Below are positions 28,361 through 51,017 of a stretch of 64,000 nucleotides of DNA, piece after piece. The first letter of the stretch is position 1; every line of letters starts with the position of its first letter. The stretch comes from Planctomycetota bacterium (lineage in GTDB: Bacteria > Planctomycetota > Planctomycetia > Planctomycetales > Planctomycetaceae). Under the pieces are notes generated by a model. The model did not search any database. It worked only from the letters and a program-made list of their open reading frames with translations, and was not told the origin of the DNA. Position numbers and translations under genes: made by a program. The stretch lies in assembly GCA_030836185.1 (NCBI GenBank), contig JAURQH010000047.1:62001-126000 (forward strand), given 5' to 3'.

Positions 28361-28494
28361 TGGAGGTCAATCTCTGGTTATACTTGATTCTGTAGTAAAA
28401 ACAGACACGGATGGAATCGAACAAAGATTCCGTACTTAATCATATATCAATTCTCCCACTTCTCGTGTGGGGATCAACATATACTCCAATTCTT

Positions 28495-29328
28495 ATGGCC
28501 AATTCATTCATAGTACGTTATGGATCGATGCGATCCATCGGTGAGTTTTCCGCTCGCCCCAGTGATCAATTTCTCAGGAATCAACAAATTCTCGTTCGCA
28601 CTGATCGAGGGATCGAATGGGGAGAGGTACTTTCAGAAGCGAGTGAGATGACGCGAAAGTATCTCAACTCCAAAAAAAGTGCGGGGCGGGTTCTGCGCGT
28701 CGCCGACGAACAGGATCTCAAGTCTCGCGATGAACTCGAAAGCAAAGAGCGCAGTGAATTTGCCAGATGCGGAGAGATGATCGCCGAACGCAAATTGCAA
28801 ATGCAGTTGGTTGATGTGGAGCATGTGTTCGGTGGAGAGCGAATCATTTTTTATTATCTGGCCGAGAATCGTGTCGATTTTCGAGAGTTGGTCAAAGATC
28901 TCGCTCGTGAATTCAATACTCGTATTGAAATGCGTCAGATCGGTGTTCGGGATGAAGCAAAACTGCTTGCCGATTACGGCGACTGTGGCAAGCCGGTCTG
29001 TTGCAACACTCATCTGAACGAGATGCCGCCCGTTTCGATGAAGATGGCCAAGATGCAAAAAGCGACCCTCGATCCCAATAAGATTTCAGGGCGTTGCGGA
29101 CGGCTGAAATGCTGCCTGCGTTACGAGTACGATACTTACAAGGAGTATCAACGCGAGCTGCCCAAAGTGGGCGCTACGGTGATGACCAGAGAGGGTCAGG
29201 GACGTGTTGTCGCTCAAGAGATTTTGGCGCAGAAAGTATTGGTCAACTATGAAGGCGGGACAACGAAGATGACCGATGCGAGCGATATTGTGACGGTTGT
29301 CTCTGGAAAAACGAAAAGCCAGTCCTGA
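28495..29328 (+). CDS. PSP1 domain protein, RicT/YaaT-like
   Basis: The 277-residue product begins at ATG 28495 (MANSFIVRYGSM); upstream start codons add a non-conserved leader. The PSP1 core includes RTDRGIEWGEV, VRDEAKLLADYGDCG and the Cys-rich segment CGKPVCCNTHL, then GRCGRLKCCLRYE. In Bacillus, RicT with RicA and RicF holds iron-sulfur clusters and affects RNase Y and phosphorelay. The Cys pattern fits cluster binding. No ricA/F-like gene is adjacent. Confidence 0.9.
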   Translation: MANSFIVRYGSMRSIGEFSARPSDQFLRNQQILVRTDRGIEWGEVLSEASEMTRKYLNSKKSAGRVLRVADEQDLKSRDELESKERSEFARCGEMIAERKLQMQLVDVEHVFGGERIIFYYLAENRVDFRELVKDLAREFNTRIEMRQIGVRDEAKLLADYGDCGKPVCCNTHLNEMPPVSMKMAKMQKATLDPNKISGRCGRLKCCLRYEYDTYKEYQRELPKVGATVMTREGQGRVVAQEILAQKVLVNYEGGTTKMTDASDIVTVVSGKTKSQS

Positions 29329-30537: not shown

Positions 30538-30562
30538 GATCATTGCCTCGCAGGAGATTGTG

Positions 30563-33244
30563 GTGAGTTTGGAAGATCGCTACCAGCTATTGGAAAAGAT
30601 CGGCACGGGATCGTATGCAACCGTCTTCCGCGCACGGGATCTGGAACTCGGCCGCGAGGTGGCGATTCGTCAAATCAACGAGAGATTTTTAGCCGAACCC
30701 CAGCATCTCGAACGATACTGGCAGGAATCGCAACTTCTCGCCTCTCTGCAACATCCGAACATCGTCACCTTATTCGACCTGGATCGCGAGAAAGGCTGGG
30801 TAATTCTGGAACTGATGCAAGCCAATCTGCGAGACCGAATCAGTGGTCGACAGATGGATTTAAAGTCGTTGCGAACGACGCTTGCTCATAGTTTACGAGC
30901 GCTCAAATATCTGCATTCACAAGGAATTGTTCACGGAGACATCAAGCCGGCTAACCTGATGCTCGATGCCCGGCGGCGTATTAAGCTGGGTGACTTTGGA
31001 TTGGCACGACGTGCCAGCGACTCTGAGGGTGAATTGCTCAAGGGAACAACAAAGTACATGGCTCCCGAAACCGTTTCCGACGATTTCGGCGAGATCGGAC
31101 CTGCGAGCGATTTATATTCACTCGGATTCAGCGCATACGAATTATTGTGTGGAACCAATTTTGACAGTCTGTTTCCCGGCTTGTCAGCCTTCGGAAGCGA
31201 TGAGCAAATTGCTTGGATGATGTGGCATGCGGCTCCCGACCGAAAGTTACCCGAGATCAATCGTGTCTTGGAAGGTGTCCCCGAAGATCTCCAACACGTG
31301 ATCCAGAAACTGACCGCAAAAGATCAAAAGAACCGATATAAATCGGCCGATGAAGCGCTTTCCGATCTTAATATCGATGCCAACCTGACAAGTGTTCGGC
31401 CAGCACTAGATGCCTCGGAAACGCTTGATCAGGAAGACGATGGAGAAGGCGACCGCACTCCCGCCGAGAAAAAACGGCTGATGATGCTCGGTGGAGCATT
31501 TGCGTTTTCGATGATCATTTCACTTTCGATGTTGTTCATGGGAGGAAATGATTCTTCCTCAGACGATCAGTCATCGAAAACTCCCCGACTGGTGGGTTAT
31601 GTACGGGACATTGATCTCGAGAACAACGTGATTATCTATAACGATGTTGATTTCACACAGGCTGCAGAAATCAAAGTTGGGGAATCGCCGCTGATCTACT
31701 TTCGCAATAACGACGAAAACATTTTGCTGAGAGAAATCGAGAAACTCGACCGTGTCATCATTGAGAAGCGCGAAGTGGGGAAAGACAAATTTCAATTGTC
31801 GATCACCGTTGATCGCCCAAAAGTGACCTATGGTCGATTGGTCACCCGAGACACGCAGCGCAAACGGATCACCATCGAAATCGAAGAAGGTCCCGAACGC
31901 GGCTCTCTTTCTTTACGAGTCCCCGAGCGTCCACGAATCAAAATCAATAACCAACAAAAACAACTCGTCGAACTCAAAGACGGCGACATGGTGCGAGTGC
32001 GACATCTTCCCGATGTGACCGGTACCAGCGGACGCATGCTGAGCGAGTTAGTTTCGCTGCGACCCGAAGAGATGACGGGGTACATCTCACAAATCAAAAT
32101 GTCTTCTCCCCCAGAACTGACGGTCCGTTTCGGTCGTTCAGAGTCTTCGGGAACCGCCACGATATTGCCTCTTGCTGAAGACGTTCTCATTCAACAAAAT
32201 GGTTCTGGCACCGAAAAGCTGAACCTGGAAGTTGCCGATCTTGAAGAAGGAGATCGCGTCCGAATCGTTTATGATGTGGAAATTCGCGAAATTCTGGTAA
32301 CTCGCGAAGAGCGTCAAACGGGCGGAGTCATTCAATCAATTGAGGATGGTCAATTTTCATTGACGCAGGATGACCGACAAAAAATCTCGTTTTCGCTGGC
32401 CGACTCCACCGAAGTCACCGTGAACAGTGGTAAAGCGACTCCCGAGGATCTCCGACAATTTGATCGATTAATTATCTCTTGGGACGACTCTTCGAGCCCA
32501 CCCAGACCAGTGGCCGTTGATGCCAAACGCCCTATTCTCAATGATCGCTGGGCGATTCTTATCGCCAATGAATCCTACACCGATCAAACTTTGACCCCCG
32601 CGAGTAACGCGGTTCGCGATGTCGAGTTATTGAAAACTGCTCTAGTCAGTCGTTATGCGTTCGCAGCAGACCGTGTTGTTGTACTGATGGACGAAACCAA
32701 AGCCGAGATCACGAAGGTGATCAACAAAACGGTCTCGCTTTCACGCAGCGATTCGCAAGTCCTAGTGTTTGTCAAAGGACACGCTTATCAAACTCCCGAT
32801 CAGAATATCTACTTGGCGGTCAAAGATACCAATCGAGACAACCTGGCCGGGACGGGACTATCATTACTCACACTGGTGGAGCCTCTGGAAAATTCCAGTT
32901 CGACCAACAAGTTTCTGTTTCTGGAAGTTTGTAGCGACGAAGCCGAGCAGGATTTGCAAAATCAACCTTCCTCGGGAGAGGCACTCAAATATTTAGTCCC
33001 GGGAACTAAATCGACGACTTTAATTGCCGCTTGTCAGTCCGATCAAAAAAGTCTGGAACATGCCGACGAAGGATACGGCTTGTTTGCACTTTGTCTCGCA
33101 GAGGCATTTCAAGGTTCAGCGGACATCAATCGAGACCTTCGAATGACTGCCGAAGAACTGAGCAATTTTCTGACTGATTGTCTGCCGACTAAAACACCCG
33201 CTGGCAAAACTCAAACTGCTACAATCCACCAGCCTTCCCCTTAG
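30563..33244 (+). CDS. Ser/Thr kinase-like membrane protein fused to a caspase-like domain
   Basis: GTG 30563 has AGGAG six nt before it; in-frame GTGs at 30536 and 30560 are alternatives. The 893-residue protein starts with a kinase domain (about 7-270): GTGSYATV loop (14-21), alpha-C Glu55, HGD (124-126), Lys128, Asn131 and DFG (144-146). The phosphate-binding Lys is replaced: VAIR, Arg36. A membrane helix (about 307-329) is followed by an exported region with repeated beta motifs (about 345-650) and a caspase/metacaspase-like domain (about 665-880) with His740 in KGHAY and Cys790 in LEVCSDE. The kinase may be weak or inactive while the protease dyad is present. The fold order suggests signal transfer across the membrane. 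Confidence 0.86.
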   Translation: MSLEDRYQLLEKIGTGSYATVFRARDLELGREVAIRQINERFLAEPQHLERYWQESQLLASLQHPNIVTLFDLDREKGWVILELMQANLRDRISGRQMDLKSLRTTLAHSLRALKYLHSQGIVHGDIKPANLMLDARRRIKLGDFGLARRASDSEGELLKGTTKYMAPETVSDDFGEIGPASDLYSLGFSAYELLCGTNFDSLFPGLSAFGSDEQIAWMMWHAAPDRKLPEINRVLEGVPEDLQHVIQKLTAKDQKNRYKSADEALSDLNIDANLTSVRPALDASETLDQEDDGEGDRTPAEKKRLMMLGGAFAFSMIISLSMLFMGGNDSSSDDQSSKTPRLVGYVRDIDLENNVIIYNDVDFTQAAEIKVGESPLIYFRNNDENILLREIEKLDRVIIEKREVGKDKFQLSITVDRPKVTYGRLVTRDTQRKRITIEIEEGPERGSLSLRVPERPRIKINNQQKQLVELKDGDMVRVRHLPDVTGTSGRMLSELVSLRPEEMTGYISQIKMSSPPELTVRFGRSESSGTATILPLAEDVLIQQNGSGTEKLNLEVADLEEGDRVRIVYDVEIREILVTREERQTGGVIQSIEDGQFSLTQDDRQKISFSLADSTEVTVNSGKATPEDLRQFDRLIISWDDSSSPPRPVAVDAKRPILNDRWAILIANESYTDQTLTPASNAVRDVELLKTALVSRYAFAADRVVVLMDETKAEITKVINKTVSLSRSDSQVLVFVKGHAYQTPDQNIYLAVKDTNRDNLAGTGLSLLTLVEPLENSSSTNKFLFLEVCSDEAEQDLQNQPSSGEALKYLVPGTKSTTLIAACQSDQKSLEHADEGYGLFALCLAEAFQGSADINRDLRMTAEELSNFLTDCLPTKTPAGKTQTATIHQPSP

Positions 33245-46031: not shown

Positions 46032-48530
46032 TCATTCTCCCGAGTTGAACGCCGGCTCGGCGATCCCGGCATCATCGATCAGCCAGGGGGTCCAGACAAG
46101 TTGCACGTCATCGGTGCGGATGTCGCTCTTGCAAGGCGTTACTTCAAGTTCTTCGAGACCCAACTTCTCAGAATCCCAATGTTCTTCGAGTGATTTAACC
46201 TCTTCGTTCAGTTCTTTTTCGAGAGCATCCTTGTCCTGTTTGAGTGTGGAGACTTTCTCTTTCGCACGTACAACATCATCTCCTTGCTGAGATGCTCGCC
46301 CCATTGATCGTGCCGAGGTCGTGGCTTTGGAAACATTCGTACGTGAGGCAATCTTGCGTCCGAATAACGCACCGAGCAACGTCGAGCCGATGCTGAGATA
46401 AGAATCGTTTCTGGCTTTCGCGTATTGAGACTCTTCCCGTTTGACGGCGGCTTCGGCCGTTTCAATGCGACCTTGTAATGTCGCGATTTTGGAACCGAAT
46501 TTTTTGCGTAATTTTTCGACATCGACATCCCGTTGTTCCGACACCGCTTGTCGTATCCTTACTCGAAAATCCCCTTCCGTTTCTCCCGGTTCGGAATAGA
46601 GTTTCAGATCGGTACACTTCCAAACATTCACACGTTGAGTCTCATAAAACTCGGCCTTCAGTCGCGAGGTCCACCGCTTCAGGTTTGTCTTGTTGAGCAA
46701 CTTCGACGGAACATCGGCAAACACGGCTTTGGGATGAGGCTCGGATGTGAATTGAAACTGATGCGAATCGACGGGGGTCGCATCTTCCCAATCCGGTTCT
46801 GTAATATTGTTGTCAAACGCTTGCAGCAGTCCCGCTTCCCGCCACTCATCGACTTTGTAAGTCGAACGCACAAAATGCAATTCGCCCGTTCCCAACATCA
46901 TAGGACGATAAACCAAACGACTTGATTCAGAAATTGGTTGTGAGAGATCCAGAAAAGTCTCTTTGACGTAATCGGGAATGACAGGTCGAGCAGCGGCCGC
47001 CAAAGATGTCATCTGGGGAGCAGGCTGAGCCTTGGCTTTTGTCACTGAAGGTATGTGGCCGGGAGCAGTCGAGGTTGGCTTTTCCTCAACCTTTGGACGT
47101 AACGGATCCATCAAGGTTTTGATCTGCTGACGAGTCAGGGGACCGCGCAGATACGATAACGCCCACCGAGTTTGAAACGTCACGGGTCGGTTTTCATGGA
47201 CGTTATTCATCAGAAAGACGCGGCGACCGAGACCAGCCAGCGTGGCTTCCATTTCTGCTTTGTTGAACTCCTGCCCCGCTTGAATCGAGGCCCCTTCGAG
47301 ACCTTCCAGCACTCGGGCTTTATCTCGTTCGGTTTGTAATCGACCTAGGAACCAGGTTCCTGTATTGGACAGACCTTTGTAGTCGAGATCGACGGGGTTT
47401 TGAGTGGCCAAGACACATCCCAATCCGTATGCGCGAGCCTGTTTCAGTAACGTCAACATCGGCGTCTTGGAAGGAGGGTTCTTTGTTGGTGGGAAGTAGC
47501 CATACACTTCGTCCATATACAAAATTGCCCGCAAGCTCGATGTCCCCGGTTGCGTTCGTACCCAAGAGAGAATTTCGTTAAGCAAGATTGTCACAAAAAA
47601 CATACGCTCGGGGTCGGAGAGATGAGAGATGGACAAAATCGACAGACGCGGCTTCCCTTCCTTCGTGTAAAGCAGCCGTTTGATGTCGAGCGGCTCGCCT
47701 TCCAGCCAACTGGCAAACGTGGGAGAGGCCAGAAGATTATTCAAGGTCATCGCCAACTCAGTGCGATCTTTGGGCGGATAAAACGTCTCCAAGTCGAGTA
47801 CACCGACGGAATGGAACGGCGGGTTCTGAATCTCTTTGATCAAAGAGGGAATATCCATGTCACGACCAGAAAGCCACGCCGTCTGGAGAATGTTCGAAAT
47901 CAGGATATGCTCGCGGCTATTAAGCGGATCCCCCTCAATTCGAATGAGCGCCAGTAATCCCGAGGCCGCCGATGAAACCCGTTCCCGAAAGGCTTCGGGA
48001 TCATCCAATATTTGCTGCGCTGGTGCGTTAAAAGATCGTAAGACTGTGATCGGTAAACCGGCAGTGCTTCCCGGCGTGTAGATGGCCATATCGACCGCAT
48101 CGCGGAACCGTTTGATTCTTCCCGGAGACTGCCCCCAGGAAGCGAGTCCTTCTTTCCACATGGTCGCCGTCTTCTCGGCATACTCATCGGGAGACATCCC
48201 TTCGCGGGCCGCTTCACTCTCATCAATCCACGGCCGAAAACTCTTTGGATTCATTTCTGGGAACGTCAAAAAGACGTTACCGAGATCCCCTTTGGGATCA
48301 ATGGCGATGACGGGAATGTTATCGATGGCGGCTTCTTCGAGCAGAGACAGACAGAGTCCTGTTTTCCCACTCCCCGTCATCCCGACACAGACGGCATGTG
48401 TTGTCAGGTCTTTGGAGTCATAAAGAATCAAATCATCCCGGCATTCGCCCGCTTCCAAATCGTATTCTTTGCCAAGATAGAAGGCGCCCAGTTTTTCGTA
48501 TTGTGGTAACGCAGTTTTCACGATGGTCAC
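46032..48530 (-). CDS. HerA/DUF87-like P-loop ATPase
   Basis: 832 residues; GTG 48530 is the first start and no clear ribosome site decides it. Walker A is GMTGSGKTGL (50-59) and Walker B is AILYMDEVYG (about 336-345), typical of HerA/FtsK-like translocases. The second half, after ALSYLRGPLTRQQIK, holds a Pro/Ala linker, a less familiar region, a coiled coil with a small Gly/Ala-rich segment (LGALFGRKIAS) and a Glu-rich tail. No nuclease such as NurA is adjacent. It could be a DNA-processing or membrane-associated ATPase; the role is unassigned. Confidence 0.82.
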   Translation of the reverse strand: MTIVKTALPQYEKLGAFYLGKEYDLEAGECRDDLILYDSKDLTTHAVCVGMTGSGKTGLCLSLLEEAAIDNIPVIAIDPKGDLGNVFLTFPEMNPKSFRPWIDESEAAREGMSPDEYAEKTATMWKEGLASWGQSPGRIKRFRDAVDMAIYTPGSTAGLPITVLRSFNAPAQQILDDPEAFRERVSSAASGLLALIRIEGDPLNSREHILISNILQTAWLSGRDMDIPSLIKEIQNPPFHSVGVLDLETFYPPKDRTELAMTLNNLLASPTFASWLEGEPLDIKRLLYTKEGKPRLSILSISHLSDPERMFFVTILLNEILSWVRTQPGTSSLRAILYMDEVYGYFPPTKNPPSKTPMLTLLKQARAYGLGCVLATQNPVDLDYKGLSNTGTWFLGRLQTERDKARVLEGLEGASIQAGQEFNKAEMEATLAGLGRRVFLMNNVHENRPVTFQTRWALSYLRGPLTRQQIKTLMDPLRPKVEEKPTSTAPGHIPSVTKAKAQPAPQMTSLAAAARPVIPDYVKETFLDLSQPISESSRLVYRPMMLGTGELHFVRSTYKVDEWREAGLLQAFDNNITEPDWEDATPVDSHQFQFTSEPHPKAVFADVPSKLLNKTNLKRWTSRLKAEFYETQRVNVWKCTDLKLYSEPGETEGDFRVRIRQAVSEQRDVDVEKLRKKFGSKIATLQGRIETAEAAVKREESQYAKARNDSYLSIGSTLLGALFGRKIASRTNVSKATTSARSMGRASQQGDDVVRAKEKVSTLKQDKDALEKELNEEVKSLEEHWDSEKLGLEELEVTPCKSDIRTDDVQLVWTPWLIDDAGIAEPAFNSGE

Positions 48531-48730: not shown

Positions 48731-49348
48731 ATGACTGAAAACGAAGGCTCGCTAATTTTTACTCTGCTCAATCGAGCCCGGGAAGGAGACGATCATGCGC
48801 GCGATGAATTATTCGAAAAATGTCGGGCTTACGTCGGCTTCATGGCACGATCTCAGATGGAAACATGGATGAATGCCAAAATCGATGCGTCTGACCTGAT
48901 TCAACAAACCATGATGGACGCTCATCAGGGATTTGATCAATTTCGTGGGAAATCGGAAGCCGAATGGATTGGTTGGTTGAAGAAAATACTGCAACATAAC
49001 ACCGTCGACTTCTGTCGAAAATACAAAGGGACAGAAAAACGAAACGCCAATCGTGAAGTTTCATTTGCGCAATCGCAATCACAAAGTTTGTTTCGAGGCG
49101 CGGCAGAACCCGATGCCAACGAAGAAACTCCCAGCGAAGTGATCATGCGCAAAGAGAATGAAATTCTGCTGGCAGACGCGCTCTCGAAACTCCCCGACGA
49201 TTATCAGGAAGTGATCTATTTGAGAAACATGCAACAACTGCCATTCCAAGAAATCGCTGACAAAATGGAGCGATCTCAAGGAGCGGTTCAGATGTTATGG
49301 TTGCGAGCCATCAAACAATTGCAGGAGCAGATGCAGCATGTCGAATGA
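48731..49348 (+). CDS. ECF-type RNA polymerase sigma factor
   Basis: The 205-residue protein has sigma-2 (ASDLIQQTMMDAHQGFDQFRG) and sigma-4 (LPDDYQEVIYLRNMQQLPFQEIA) regions with a helix-turn-helix (MERSQGAVQMLWLRAIKQLQ). Its gene overlaps the next kinase gene by 11 nt. Sigma-kinase pairs are common in planctomycetes and suggest the kinase controls the sigma factor. Confidence 0.92.
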   Translation: MTENEGSLIFTLLNRAREGDDHARDELFEKCRAYVGFMARSQMETWMNAKIDASDLIQQTMMDAHQGFDQFRGKSEAEWIGWLKKILQHNTVDFCRKYKGTEKRNANREVSFAQSQSQSLFRGAAEPDANEETPSEVIMRKENEILLADALSKLPDDYQEVIYLRNMQQLPFQEIADKMERSQGAVQMLWLRAIKQLQEQMQHVE

Positions 49349-51017
49349 TGTCGGTGATCGTCCGACTCCATCTGACGAGTCCGAAGAATTGCTGTTTGCG
49401 CAATTGGAAGCCTACACCCAAGCGCTTCAGGTGGGAGAACACACCACTTGTGAACGCATCCTGAATGAATCACCAGAGATCGAACCCTTCATCGGGTGTC
49501 TGGGAAATTTGAATGACTTCAGTGTGGTGCAGTCTCGTTCGCTGGCTGACATTAATCTTCCCGAATACGCACCCACTATTTCCAGTGGCTCGGGATCGAG
49601 TTCCTCGTTCGGCTCATCCATGCTCAAACCGAACCAGACATTCGGAAAGTTTGAGATTGAAGAAGAGCTAGGCCGTGGTGGAATGGGTGTTGTGTTTCGA
49701 GCGCGTCAAACAGACCTCAAACGCGATGTTGCCATTAAGGTCATCCGCTCGCATCAATTGGCTGATGACGAAGATTTACGGCGTTTTCAGATCGAAGCCC
49801 AAGCCGCCGCAAGATTGAAGCATCCCAACATTGTCACCGTTCACGAAATTGGTGAAGTCGAGGGACAACATTACTTTGCCATGGATTATGTCACCGGGGA
49901 CACATTGTCCGACCGGTTGAAATCTGGCCCTTTGGACATCGAAGAAGCGGTCACATTATTGATTCCGATCTCTCAGGCGGTGCATTATCTCCACGAACAT
50001 CAGGTCATGCATCGTGACTTGAAACCCTCAAATATTTTACTGGATGAAAACGGTAAGCCATTGGTCACCGACTTCGGGCTGGCCCGAATTTTTGGAAACG
50101 ATGATGACCAACAGACACAAACCGGCGTGATTATCGGGACACCCAGTTATATGTCTCCCGAACAGGCAGCCGGTCGCGTGAAGCTGATCACCAATCGCAG
50201 CGACATCTATTCGCTGGGAGCGATTCTGTACGAAATGTTGACCGGGAAACCCCCCTTCAAAAAAGACCACCCACTCGACACGATAGTCCAAGTGATTGAA
50301 CAGGAGCCGTTGCTACCGCGACGATTGCGCTCGGGGCTTCCTCGTGACTTGGAAAAAGTCTGTCTGAAATGTCTCGAAAAAGATCCCGACAAACGGTACG
50401 CAACTGCCGAAGAACTGGCAGAAGACTTACAGCGATTTTTGCAGGGCGAACACGTTCAAGCAGCTTCACCATCGTTGATCAGTCGCGTGAATCGTTGGTC
50501 TCGTCGATTTCCTGCCGCGTCTTCACGCTGGGCCGGAGTGCTCGCTGCCGCGACGATTGTTCAAGGACGGTACTGGATCAGCGGAGTCGAAAGTCAGCCC
50601 TATCATAATGAAGTCATGACGATTCTCGGCGTGTGGGCCATTGTGATTGGGTTGTTTCAATTTCTTGCCGCGAATCGGACTGTGAAAACATATCTGGAAT
50701 ACGCCTGGGCCGCGACGGATGCTCTCCTGCTGACGTTTGTCTTATTGAAGGTGCCCGAAGATTTGGGACCGCTGGTCATTGGATATCCCATGGTTGTCGT
50801 CGCTTCGGGGATGTTTTTCAACGTGCGCGTAGTGGTCTGTTCAACGATTCTATCATGTCTTGGATACCTGGGACTTTGGCGATGGCATCCCACCGAACCC
50901 TATCTGCCACATTACGGAGTGATCTTCATGGTCACTCTCGGAATTCTCGGAGCAGTCACCGCGGCACAGGTCCGAAGAGTTCGCGTCTTGAACCAGTATT
51001 ACGAATCGCGACAATAA
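49338..51017 (+). CDS. Membrane Ser/Thr protein kinase
   Basis: 559 residues. The kinase domain (about 100-365) has GRGGMGVVF, VAIKVI, HRDLKPSN and DFGLAR, so it should be active. The last third has about five or six membrane helices (from VLAAATIVQ to VTLGILGAVTAA). A Ser-rich stretch precedes the kinase. It overlaps the ECF sigma gene by 11 nt, supporting a shared function. Confidence 0.92.
   Translation: MSNDVGDRPTPSDESEELLFAQLEAYTQALQVGEHTTCERILNESPEIEPFIGCLGNLNDFSVVQSRSLADINLPEYAPTISSGSGSSSSFGSSMLKPNQTFGKFEIEEELGRGGMGVVFRARQTDLKRDVAIKVIRSHQLADDEDLRRFQIEAQAAARLKHPNIVTVHEIGEVEGQHYFAMDYVTGDTLSDRLKSGPLDIEEAVTLLIPISQAVHYLHEHQVMHRDLKPSNILLDENGKPLVTDFGLARIFGNDDDQQTQTGVIIGTPSYMSPEQAAGRVKLITNRSDIYSLGAILYEMLTGKPPFKKDHPLDTIVQVIEQEPLLPRRLRSGLPRDLEKVCLKCLEKDPDKRYATAEELAEDLQRFLQGEHVQAASPSLISRVNRWSRRFPAASSRWAGVLAAATIVQGRYWISGVESQPYHNEVMTILGVWAIVIGLFQFLAANRTVKTYLEYAWAATDALLLTFVLLKVPEDLGPLVIGYPMVVVASGMFFNVRVVVCSTILSCLGYLGLWRWHPTEPYLPHYGVIFMVTLGILGAVTAAQVRRVRVLNQYYESRQ

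What the first reader, a model, noticed from the sequence alone, without database searches (positions are those of the whole stretch)
30563..33244. Kinase with Arg in place of the VAIK Lys fused to a caspase-like domain
The kinase has VAIR (Arg36) and HGD, suggesting low or no phosphotransfer, while the caspase dyad His740/Cys790 is kept behind a membrane helix. A pseudokinase sensor controlling an external or membrane-proximal cysteine protease is an unusual arrangement and a candidate for a new signalling or defence module with its neighbours.
Basis: partly seen in the sequence, partly recalled or inferred. Interest (0 to 1): 0.65.

Follow-up and report, generated by a model that had tools for sequence, protein, structure and literature searches.

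The report
Receptor kinase linked to pilus machine
This planctomycete membrane protein joins a kinase that has lost its key lysine in one genus to an external caspase-shaped domain that has lost its cutting residues in most relatives, and in related species its gene goes together with a pilus machine that it probably signals to.

Summary
In detail: one 893-aa ORF (30563-33244) carries a Hanks kinase with Arg36 for the beta3 Lys, HGD, one membrane helix, beta-barrels and a caspase fold with His740/Cys790. The interpretation largely fails its own tests. Arg36 occurs only in the window's genus (3 of 3 species); 80 of 80 other readable homologs keep Lys. HGD is family-wide (82 of 83). The His-Cys dyad is the weak part: 10 of 69 homologs keep both.

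New: homologs often sit directly downstream of a Tad/Flp-like pilus operon whose motor ATPase carries an FHA (phosphopeptide-binding) domain (37 of 65 loci), and kinase and operon co-occur (52 both, 111 neither, 7 discordant of 170 genomes). The genus keeps the operon elsewhere. It also has Glu157 for a conserved activation-loop Ser, and Ala for the motor's FHA phosphate-binding Ser; these two sites change together on four branches, suggestive but not significant by the tree-aware sign test. Best reading: a pilus-linked receptor kinase whose catalysis is impaired in this genus, though its kinase domain stays its most constrained part (dN/dS 0.012). Residual activity is not excluded.

The parts
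30552..30556 (+). AGGAG, likely ribosome-binding site 6 nt before the GTG at 30563
   Evidence: sequence
30563..33244 (+). receptor kinase with caspase-fold ectodomain, 893 aa
   Evidence: ORF and homology
30581..31360 (+). cytoplasmic Hanks-type kinase domain, about residues 7-266
   Evidence: PF00069 E 6.4e-48; PknB is the best sequence match among solved structures, E 5.9e-34
30668..30670 (+). Arg36 (CGT) in place of the beta3 Lys
   Evidence: R in 3 of 3 genus members, K in 80 of 80 other readable homologs
31031..31033 (+). Glu157 (GAA), activation-loop site that is Ser in most homologs
   Evidence: Ser in 75 of 80 outside the genus; covaries with TadA FHA Ser41
31478..31534 (+). single membrane helix, residues 306-324, KKR on its N side (kinase inside, rest outside)
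   Evidence: hydropathy; orientation by the positive-inside rule (recalled)
31580..32524 (+). extracytoplasmic tandem small beta-barrels (OB-like), residues 340-654
   Evidence: AlphaFold models pLDDT 93.6 and 92.2; single-barrel match to CusF 2qcp TMt 0.76, but E only 1.7e-2
32546..33217 (+). caspase-fold domain, residues 662-885
   Evidence: PF00656 E 2.7e-14; Z about 21 to procaspase-6 and metacaspase
32780..32782 (+). His740 (CAC), catalytic His position
   Evidence: H in 48 of 70 homologs that cover it
32930..32932 (+). Cys790 (TGT), catalytic Cys position, with Glu788 in place of the usual Asp two residues before
   Evidence: C in 13 of 69 homologs that cover it

Best explanation
It is a single-pass receptor kinase of planctomycetes that serves a Tad/Flp-like pilus machine of the type whose motor ATPase (TadA/CpaF) carries an N-terminal FHA domain. 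The extracytoplasmic barrels and caspase-fold domain act as a ligand- or pilus-sensing module, in most species without proteolysis. The cytoplasmic kinase passes the signal to the motor, most likely by the FHA domain of TadA docking on the kinase activation loop around site 157. In the window's genus the same receptor is kept, but catalysis is impaired (Arg36) and the activation loop carries a fixed negative charge (Glu157), so it probably works as an ATP-binding scaffold or conformational switch, with at most low phosphotransfer. Shown here: anatomy, genus-limited Arg, loss of the dyad in most homologs, linkage and co-occurrence with the pilus operon, covariation of site 157 with the FHA Ser. 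Inferred: direction of signalling, physical contact, loss of activity, ligand.
For: K at beta3 in 80 of 80 readable homologs outside the genus and R in 3 of 3 inside; alphaC Glu, HxD Asp, Asn, DFG Asp and APE Glu kept in 83 of 83. Kinase domain dN/dS 0.012 between the two nearest genus members, against 0.065 (barrels) and 0.106 (caspase), inside the range 0.004-0.085 of the kinase domains of the 11 Lys-bearing pairs measured. Dyad intact in 10 of 69; parsimony 7 changes of the dyad state, 1 of beta3. Operon directly upstream in 37 of 65 homolog loci with at least 2.2 kb upstream: 29 of 33 in L073-L110, 8 of 32 in L031-L072; parts identified by Pfam in one or two example loci: T2SSE+FHA, two T2SSF proteins, and a membrane protein with an FHA domain. 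Co-occurrence over 170 genomes of the family: kinase and TadC 52 both, 5 kinase only, 2 TadC only, 111 neither; with the FHA/Zn-ribbon membrane protein 52/5/1/112. The genus has the FHA-motor, both platform proteins and the FHA membrane protein, unlinked from the kinase, in 3 of 3 species. Site 157 against FHA Ser41: 59 Ser/Ser, 9 changed in both, 1 in the kinase only, 0 in FHA only, of 69; first of 63,261 column pairs by shared branch changes (4 of 4 FHA changes). Precedent: PknQ activation-loop pSer170/pThr174 bound by an FHA protein, weakened by mutating the FHA Ser (passages of PMC4238996).
Against: No biochemistry. Co-occurrence within one family can reflect shared ancestry, and the match thresholds were set after seeing the score gap. 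The tree-aware sign test on well-supported branches has only 2-3 independent pairs and is not significant (p 0.5). The nominal 9e-6 for the 157/41 pair times 63,261 pairs gives about 0.6 such pairs by chance; it counts only because both are functional sites, and I looked at them after noting the genus differences. L108 has Gly157 with the FHA Ser kept. The FHA His44 is not His in 30 of 69 motors, so the FHA site varies apart from Ser41 too. In 28 of 65 loci the gene is not beside the operon by the rule used. The TadE- and RcpC-like matches fall below the Pfam cut-offs, so 'Tad-like' rests on the motor and platform proteins. Natural beta3 Arg does not prove inactivity.
Confidence: 0.5

Rival explanations
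1. The Arg36 kinase is still a working enzyme: Arg holds ATP well enough, all other catalytic residues are kept, and Glu157 compensates by stabilising the active loop.
For: The other catalytic residues checked are kept in 3 of 3 genus members and the constraint on the kinase domain is not relaxed. Beta3 Arg can still allow nucleotide binding: EphB6, KSR1 (as cited in passages of PMC12599244).
Against: 80 of 80 readable homologs outside the genus keep Lys; 24 of 24 other own-genome kinases readable at the site have Lys; no substitute Lys at the WNK-type beta2 position (Ala there; alignment; WNK position recalled).
Confidence: 0.3
2. One reading: a pseudokinase sensor gates an active, external cysteine protease.
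For: The genus keeps His740 and Cys790 in 3 of 3 species and the caspase fold is sound. In this genus the two losses are complementary: kinase Lys lost, dyad kept.
Against: Dyad not intact in 59 of 69 homologs; the usual Asp two before Cys (64 of 67 outside the genus) is Glu in the genus; of the three domains compared, caspase is the least constrained in the genus pair (dN/dS 0.106). At least seven homologs of about 650 aa end after the barrels and lack the domain (L031, L042, L049, L058, L061, L064, L071).
Confidence: 0.15
3. Kinase and pilus operon are unrelated in function; linkage and co-occurrence are inherited together, and the covariation is chance.
For: Gene is not beside the operon in 28 of 65 loci nor in the genus; sign test not significant.
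Against: Co-occurrence persists when unlinked (7 discordant of 170 for TadC, all listed at 91% completeness or less), and the same gene order is found in loci titled Planctomycetaceae, Pirellulales and Thermoguttaceae.
Confidence: 0.2
4. The protein is a decaying relic in this genus after it left the operon.
For: Loss of linkage, of beta3 Lys and of the FHA Ser coincide in the genus.
Against: Kinase domain 98.5% identical with dS 0.57 and dN/dS 0.012; 90.9% identical to the third species, where dS is saturated; the other catalytic residues checked are kept.
Confidence: 0.05

Closest known systems
PknB/StkP-type transmembrane Hanks kinases
   Same: Kinase inside, one helix, sensory part outside (topology of PknB recalled); best solved sequence matches are PknB
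   Different: No PASTA repeats found by Pfam; ectodomain is barrels plus caspase fold; beta3 Arg in this genus
Bacterial pseudokinase families ActPs2 and DYD (PMC12599244, passages read)
   Same: beta3 Lys replaced by Arg; membrane-associated
   Different: ActPs2 also loses the HRD Asp and mostly DFG, DYD lacks the alphaC Glu; all are kept here; described from Actinobacteria and Firmicutes
Prokaryotic caspase homologs and pseudo-orthocaspases (PMC3501461, PMC6426788, passages read)
   Same: Caspase domain, loss of the His-Cys dyad in part of the members
   Different: Those surveys report 84% intact overall and 64% in Planctomycetes, and 8.6% pseudo among bacterial orthocaspases; here 59 of 69 lack an intact dyad, with Ser the commonest residue at the Cys site (30 of 69), and the domain is fused to a kinase. 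Their figures and supplements were not seen, so the fusion itself may be listed there
Class III CpaF/TadA motors with N-terminal FHA, and Myxococcus KilF (PMC12019362, PMC8460266, passages read)
   Same: Tad motor ATPase with FHA domain, as in the operon found here
   Different: No protein kinase is named with them in the passages read ('kinase' occurs 0 times in PMC8460266 and once, as pyruvate kinase, in PMC12019362); here a receptor kinase adjoins the operon
PknQ-MupFHA pair (PMC4238996, passages read)
   Same: FHA reads the phosphorylated activation loop of a kinase encoded nearby and needs its conserved Ser
   Different: Nothing in the passages read ties that FHA protein to a pilus motor

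Membership tests
Hanks-type Ser/Thr protein kinase (PF00069) | kinase family score over cut-off | tested here: met
   163.9 bits, cut-off 31.7
Hanks-type Ser/Thr protein kinase (PF00069) | beta3 Lys | tested here: not met
   Arg36; 80 of 80 readable homologs outside the genus have Lys
pseudokinase | at least one canonical catalytic residue missing | tested here: met
   beta3 Lys only; alphaC Glu, HxD Asp, Asn, DFG Asp kept
pseudokinase | no or very low phosphotransfer | not testable with these tools
   needs an assay
ActPs2 pseudokinases | HRD Asp lost and DFG mostly deleted besides beta3 Arg | tested here: not met
   Asp126 and DFG kept; definition from PMC12599244
DYD pseudokinases | alphaC Glu absent | tested here: not met
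   Glu55 kept, as in 83 of 83 homologs; definition from PMC12599244
caspase homolog, Peptidase_C14 | caspase fold | tested here: met
   53.9 bits, cut-off 21.4; Z about 21
caspase homolog, Peptidase_C14 | His-Cys dyad in this protein | tested here: met
   His740, Cys790
caspase homolog, Peptidase_C14 | proteolytic activity | not testable with these tools
   dyad not intact in 59 of 69 homologs
PASTA kinase | PASTA repeats | tested here: not met
   no PASTA match among the 8 Pfam families listed at E up to 1
anti-phage defence kinase (mad6, PD-T4-6) | match beyond a generic kinase domain | tested here: inconclusive
   36 PADLOC families hit, 25 shown; the shown matches end no later than residue 314 (mad6 profile 49-315 of 659)
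Tad/Flp pilus accessory protein | gene in or beside a Tad-like operon | tested here: inconclusive
   37 of 65 homolog loci, but not in the window's genus

The most novel reading that the evidence does not exclude
In this genus a phospho-switch has been replaced by a built-in one: the receptor kinase gave up catalysis (Lys to Arg) and fixed its activation loop as if phosphorylated (Ser157 to Glu), while the FHA domain of the pilus motor gave up its phosphate-holding Ser (to Ala) so as to read the carboxylate. Family-wide, the motor ATPase reads the activation loop of its own receptor kinase directly, and a caspase fold outside the membrane serves as the sensor.
Probability: 0.15. Interest if true: 0.85.

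Novelty: new variant of a known kind. Interest (0 to 1): 0.58.

Why it matters
FHA domains on Tad motor ATPases are known, but the passages read here name no kinase that controls them. This family supplies a candidate, with a covarying residue pair that can be tested directly. It is also a natural series in which two catalytic domains of one protein lose active residues in different lineages, so the scaffold role of each can be separated. If the genus-level swap of Lys, activation-loop Ser and FHA Ser is real co-adaptation, it shows how a phosphorylation circuit turns into a phosphorylation-free one.

Tried and rejected
HGD as a sign of loss: rejected, family-wide. A module with the window's neighbours (PSP1 protein, 127-aa and 164-aa proteins, PD40 propeller, GFO/IDH/MocA oxidoreductase): rejected; outside the genus only the oxidoreductase (L076, L084) and the 429-aa protein (L050) had hits among L031-L110. 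Defence system: the PADLOC matches shown lie on the kinase part. A compensating WNK-type Lys: none at the corresponding site. Relic: disfavoured by dN/dS. Sequencing error at Arg36: rejected, same codon in three genomes. Promoter- and terminator-like sites around the gene are no more than in shuffles; the repeats reported are short two-copy or distant pairs. Fold of the barrels: no whole-region match of high quality; single barrels resemble CusF. Papers: kinase plus Peptidase C14 in Planctomycetes, 0 papers by the terms; 3 papers by the terms, none relevant by their listing; the planctomycete kinase survey PMC11032199 has 0 occurrences of caspase and of peptidase in its main text, but its supplements were not seen. 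A prior report of a kinase tied to an FHA-type Tad locus was not seen in the listings. PMC1262709 and PMC7159879 (passages) gave no such kinase-caspase receptor.

Full report
1. The observation. The window encodes one open frame, 30563-33244 on the + strand, 893 aa from the GTG that follows AGGAG. It holds a Hanks-type kinase domain (PF00069, E 6.4e-48) and a caspase domain (PF00656, E 2.7e-14), with one membrane helix between them (residues 306-324, KKR before it), which by the positive-inside rule (recalled) places the kinase inside and the rest outside. The AlphaFold model of the ectodomain has pLDDT 93.6: small beta-barrels followed by a caspase fold (procaspase-6 4nbn Z 21.2, 2.6 A over 201; metacaspase 6w8s Z 20.9, 2.3 A over 200).

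2. Is Arg fixed? At the beta3 site 83 are readable: Arg in the 3 species of the window's genus, Lys in the 80 others. The five other catalytic residues checked (alphaC Glu, HxD Asp, Asn, DFG Asp, APE Glu) are present in 83 of 83. HGD is found in 82 of 83, so it is a family trait. A set of 54 genomes of the family, partly overlapping, shows the same split, 3 Arg and 51 Lys. Of the window genome's 30 kinase matches, 26 aligned and 25 were readable at this site; only this one has Arg.

3. Is the kinase domain decaying? It does not look so. Between the two closest genus members it is 98.5% identical with dS 0.57 and dN/dS 0.012; the barrels give 0.065 and the caspase domain 0.106. Eleven Lys-bearing pairs gave 0.004-0.085 for the kinase domain. 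Comparisons with the third species of the genus have saturated dS. The domain is under strong constraint although its Lys is gone.

4. The caspase dyad. Of 69 homologs that cover both positions, 10 keep His and Cys (7 of 66 outside the genus), 37 keep His only, 3 Cys only, 19 neither; Ser is the commonest residue at the Cys site (30) and 29 have a Cys one position earlier, which might in principle serve. On a tree the dyad state changes 7 times, the beta3 state once. Published surveys found 84% of prokaryotic caspase homologs intact, 64% in Planctomycetes (PMC3501461, passages), and 8.6% pseudo among bacterial orthocaspases (PMC6426788, passages). This family is thus mostly pseudo-caspase by its residues, yet the domain is under purifying selection (dN/dS 0.05-0.25 in the nine Lys-bearing pairs measured, four of which include a C-terminal extension). 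At least seven homologs of about 650 aa lack the domain; many of about 1,130 aa carry an extra C-terminal region (looks like helical repeats, not tested).

5. Neighbourhood. Of 16 other ORFs around the gene, 9 have a relative in both other species of the genus and 3 in one; outside the genus two had hits at all. Elsewhere a different neighbourhood recurs: in order, proteins with weak TadE- and RcpC-like matches, a TadA/CpaF-type ATPase with an N-terminal FHA domain (T2SSE 1.8e-59 and FHA 4.2e-9 in L048), two T2SSF platform proteins, a single-pass membrane protein with an N-terminal FHA (in several others a zinc-ribbon-like start), then this kinase. By a fixed rule (one of the last three families within 4.5 kb upstream on the same strand) 37 of 65 homolog loci with at least 2.2 kb upstream are linked: 29 of 33 in L073-L110 and 8 of 32 in L031-L072. 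In the window's genus the FHA-motor, both platform proteins and the FHA membrane protein are present together on another contig in 3 of 3 genomes.

6. Co-occurrence. In 170 genomes of the family, 57 have the kinase, 54 the matching TadC, 53 the FHA membrane protein. Kinase with TadC: 52 both, 5 kinase only, 2 TadC only, 111 neither (Fisher 3e-35); with the membrane protein 52, 5, 1, 112 (1e-36). Counted by hand, the FHA-motor gives 53 both, 4 kinase only, 1 motor only, 112 neither. The genomes discordant for TadC are all listed at 91% completeness or less. Fisher's test ignores shared ancestry. At class level 55 of 397 genomes have the ectodomain profile at E 1e-60 or better.

7. Covariation. 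Positions that set the genus apart include Glu157 in the activation loop, Ser in 75 of 80 others, in the sequence EG-S-LLKGTT. TadA's FHA domain shows the motif GR...SxxH...N; its Ser41, the phosphate-binding Ser by comparison with MupFHA Ser55/His58 (PMC4238996, passages), is Ala in the genus. Across 69 genomes with both genes: 59 Ser/Ser, 9 changed in both, 1 changed in the kinase only (L108, Gly157), 0 in FHA only. The changed ones are the genus (Glu/Ala), G010 with G189-G191 (Thr/Gly), G121 (Thr/Ala) and G028 (Gly/Ala; this kinase also has HSD and Asn for the Lys after it). On the tree site 157 changes 5 times and Ser41 4 times, all 4 on shared branches; the pair ranks first of 63,261 column pairs, and residue 212 with Ser41 second; by simple correlation 157 ranks first of 788 columns. 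Against: the sign test on well-supported branches has too few independent pairs (p 0.5); about 0.6 pairs of this nominal strength are expected among all pairs; I chose these sites after noticing the genus differences; and the FHA His44 is replaced in 30 of 69 motors regardless. I rate this as suggestive.

8. Mechanism. The simplest reading is a receptor kinase for an FHA-type Tad-like machine: outside sensor, inside kinase, motor ATPase docking through FHA. FHA binding to a phosphorylated activation loop has a precedent (PknQ-MupFHA). In the genus, Lys to Arg probably cripples phosphotransfer; pseudokinases with this change can still bind nucleotide (EphB6, KSR1, as cited in PMC12599244). Glu157 and the FHA Ala fit a circuit that no longer depends on phosphate, but this last step is conjecture. 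Shown: sequence facts and associations. Inferred: contact, direction, activity.

9. Novelty. Each part is known (transmembrane Hanks kinases, beta3-Arg pseudokinases, pseudo-caspases, FHA-bearing Tad motors). The combination, and a kinase tied to an FHA-type Tad locus, was not seen in the listings and passages found; this is limited to the held open-access library and those terms, and figures and supplements were not seen. I file it as a new variant of a known kind.

Noticed in passing
window 49338-51017, + strand: Second Ser/Thr kinase, 559 aa, with canonical Lys and HRD (L209; Pfam).
   Followed up: partly
window 46032-48530, - strand: 832-aa protein with HerA/DUF87-like ATPase matches at its N-terminus.
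   Followed up: no
window 28411-29328, + strand: PSP1-domain protein near the kinase, with relatives at the same place in the two other species of the genus.
   Followed up: partly
G086:C29, G059:C11, G103, G107 and others: Several genomes of the family carry multiple, sometimes clustered, other proteins with a related caspase domain (up to the scoring limit of 8 per genome).
   Followed up: no
L031, L042, L049, L058, L061, L064, L071: Homologs of about 650 aa that end after the barrels and lack the caspase domain; several lie near the Tad-like operon.
   Followed up: partly
G028 (L018): Second lineage with an altered kinase active site: HSD, and Asn for the Lys after it, with the FHA Ser also lost.
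   Followed up: partly
kinase residue 212 (genus Ser, others mostly Arg), window 31196-31198: Second-best covarying site with TadA FHA Ser41; it lies in a stretch absent from PknB in the alignment.
   Followed up: partly
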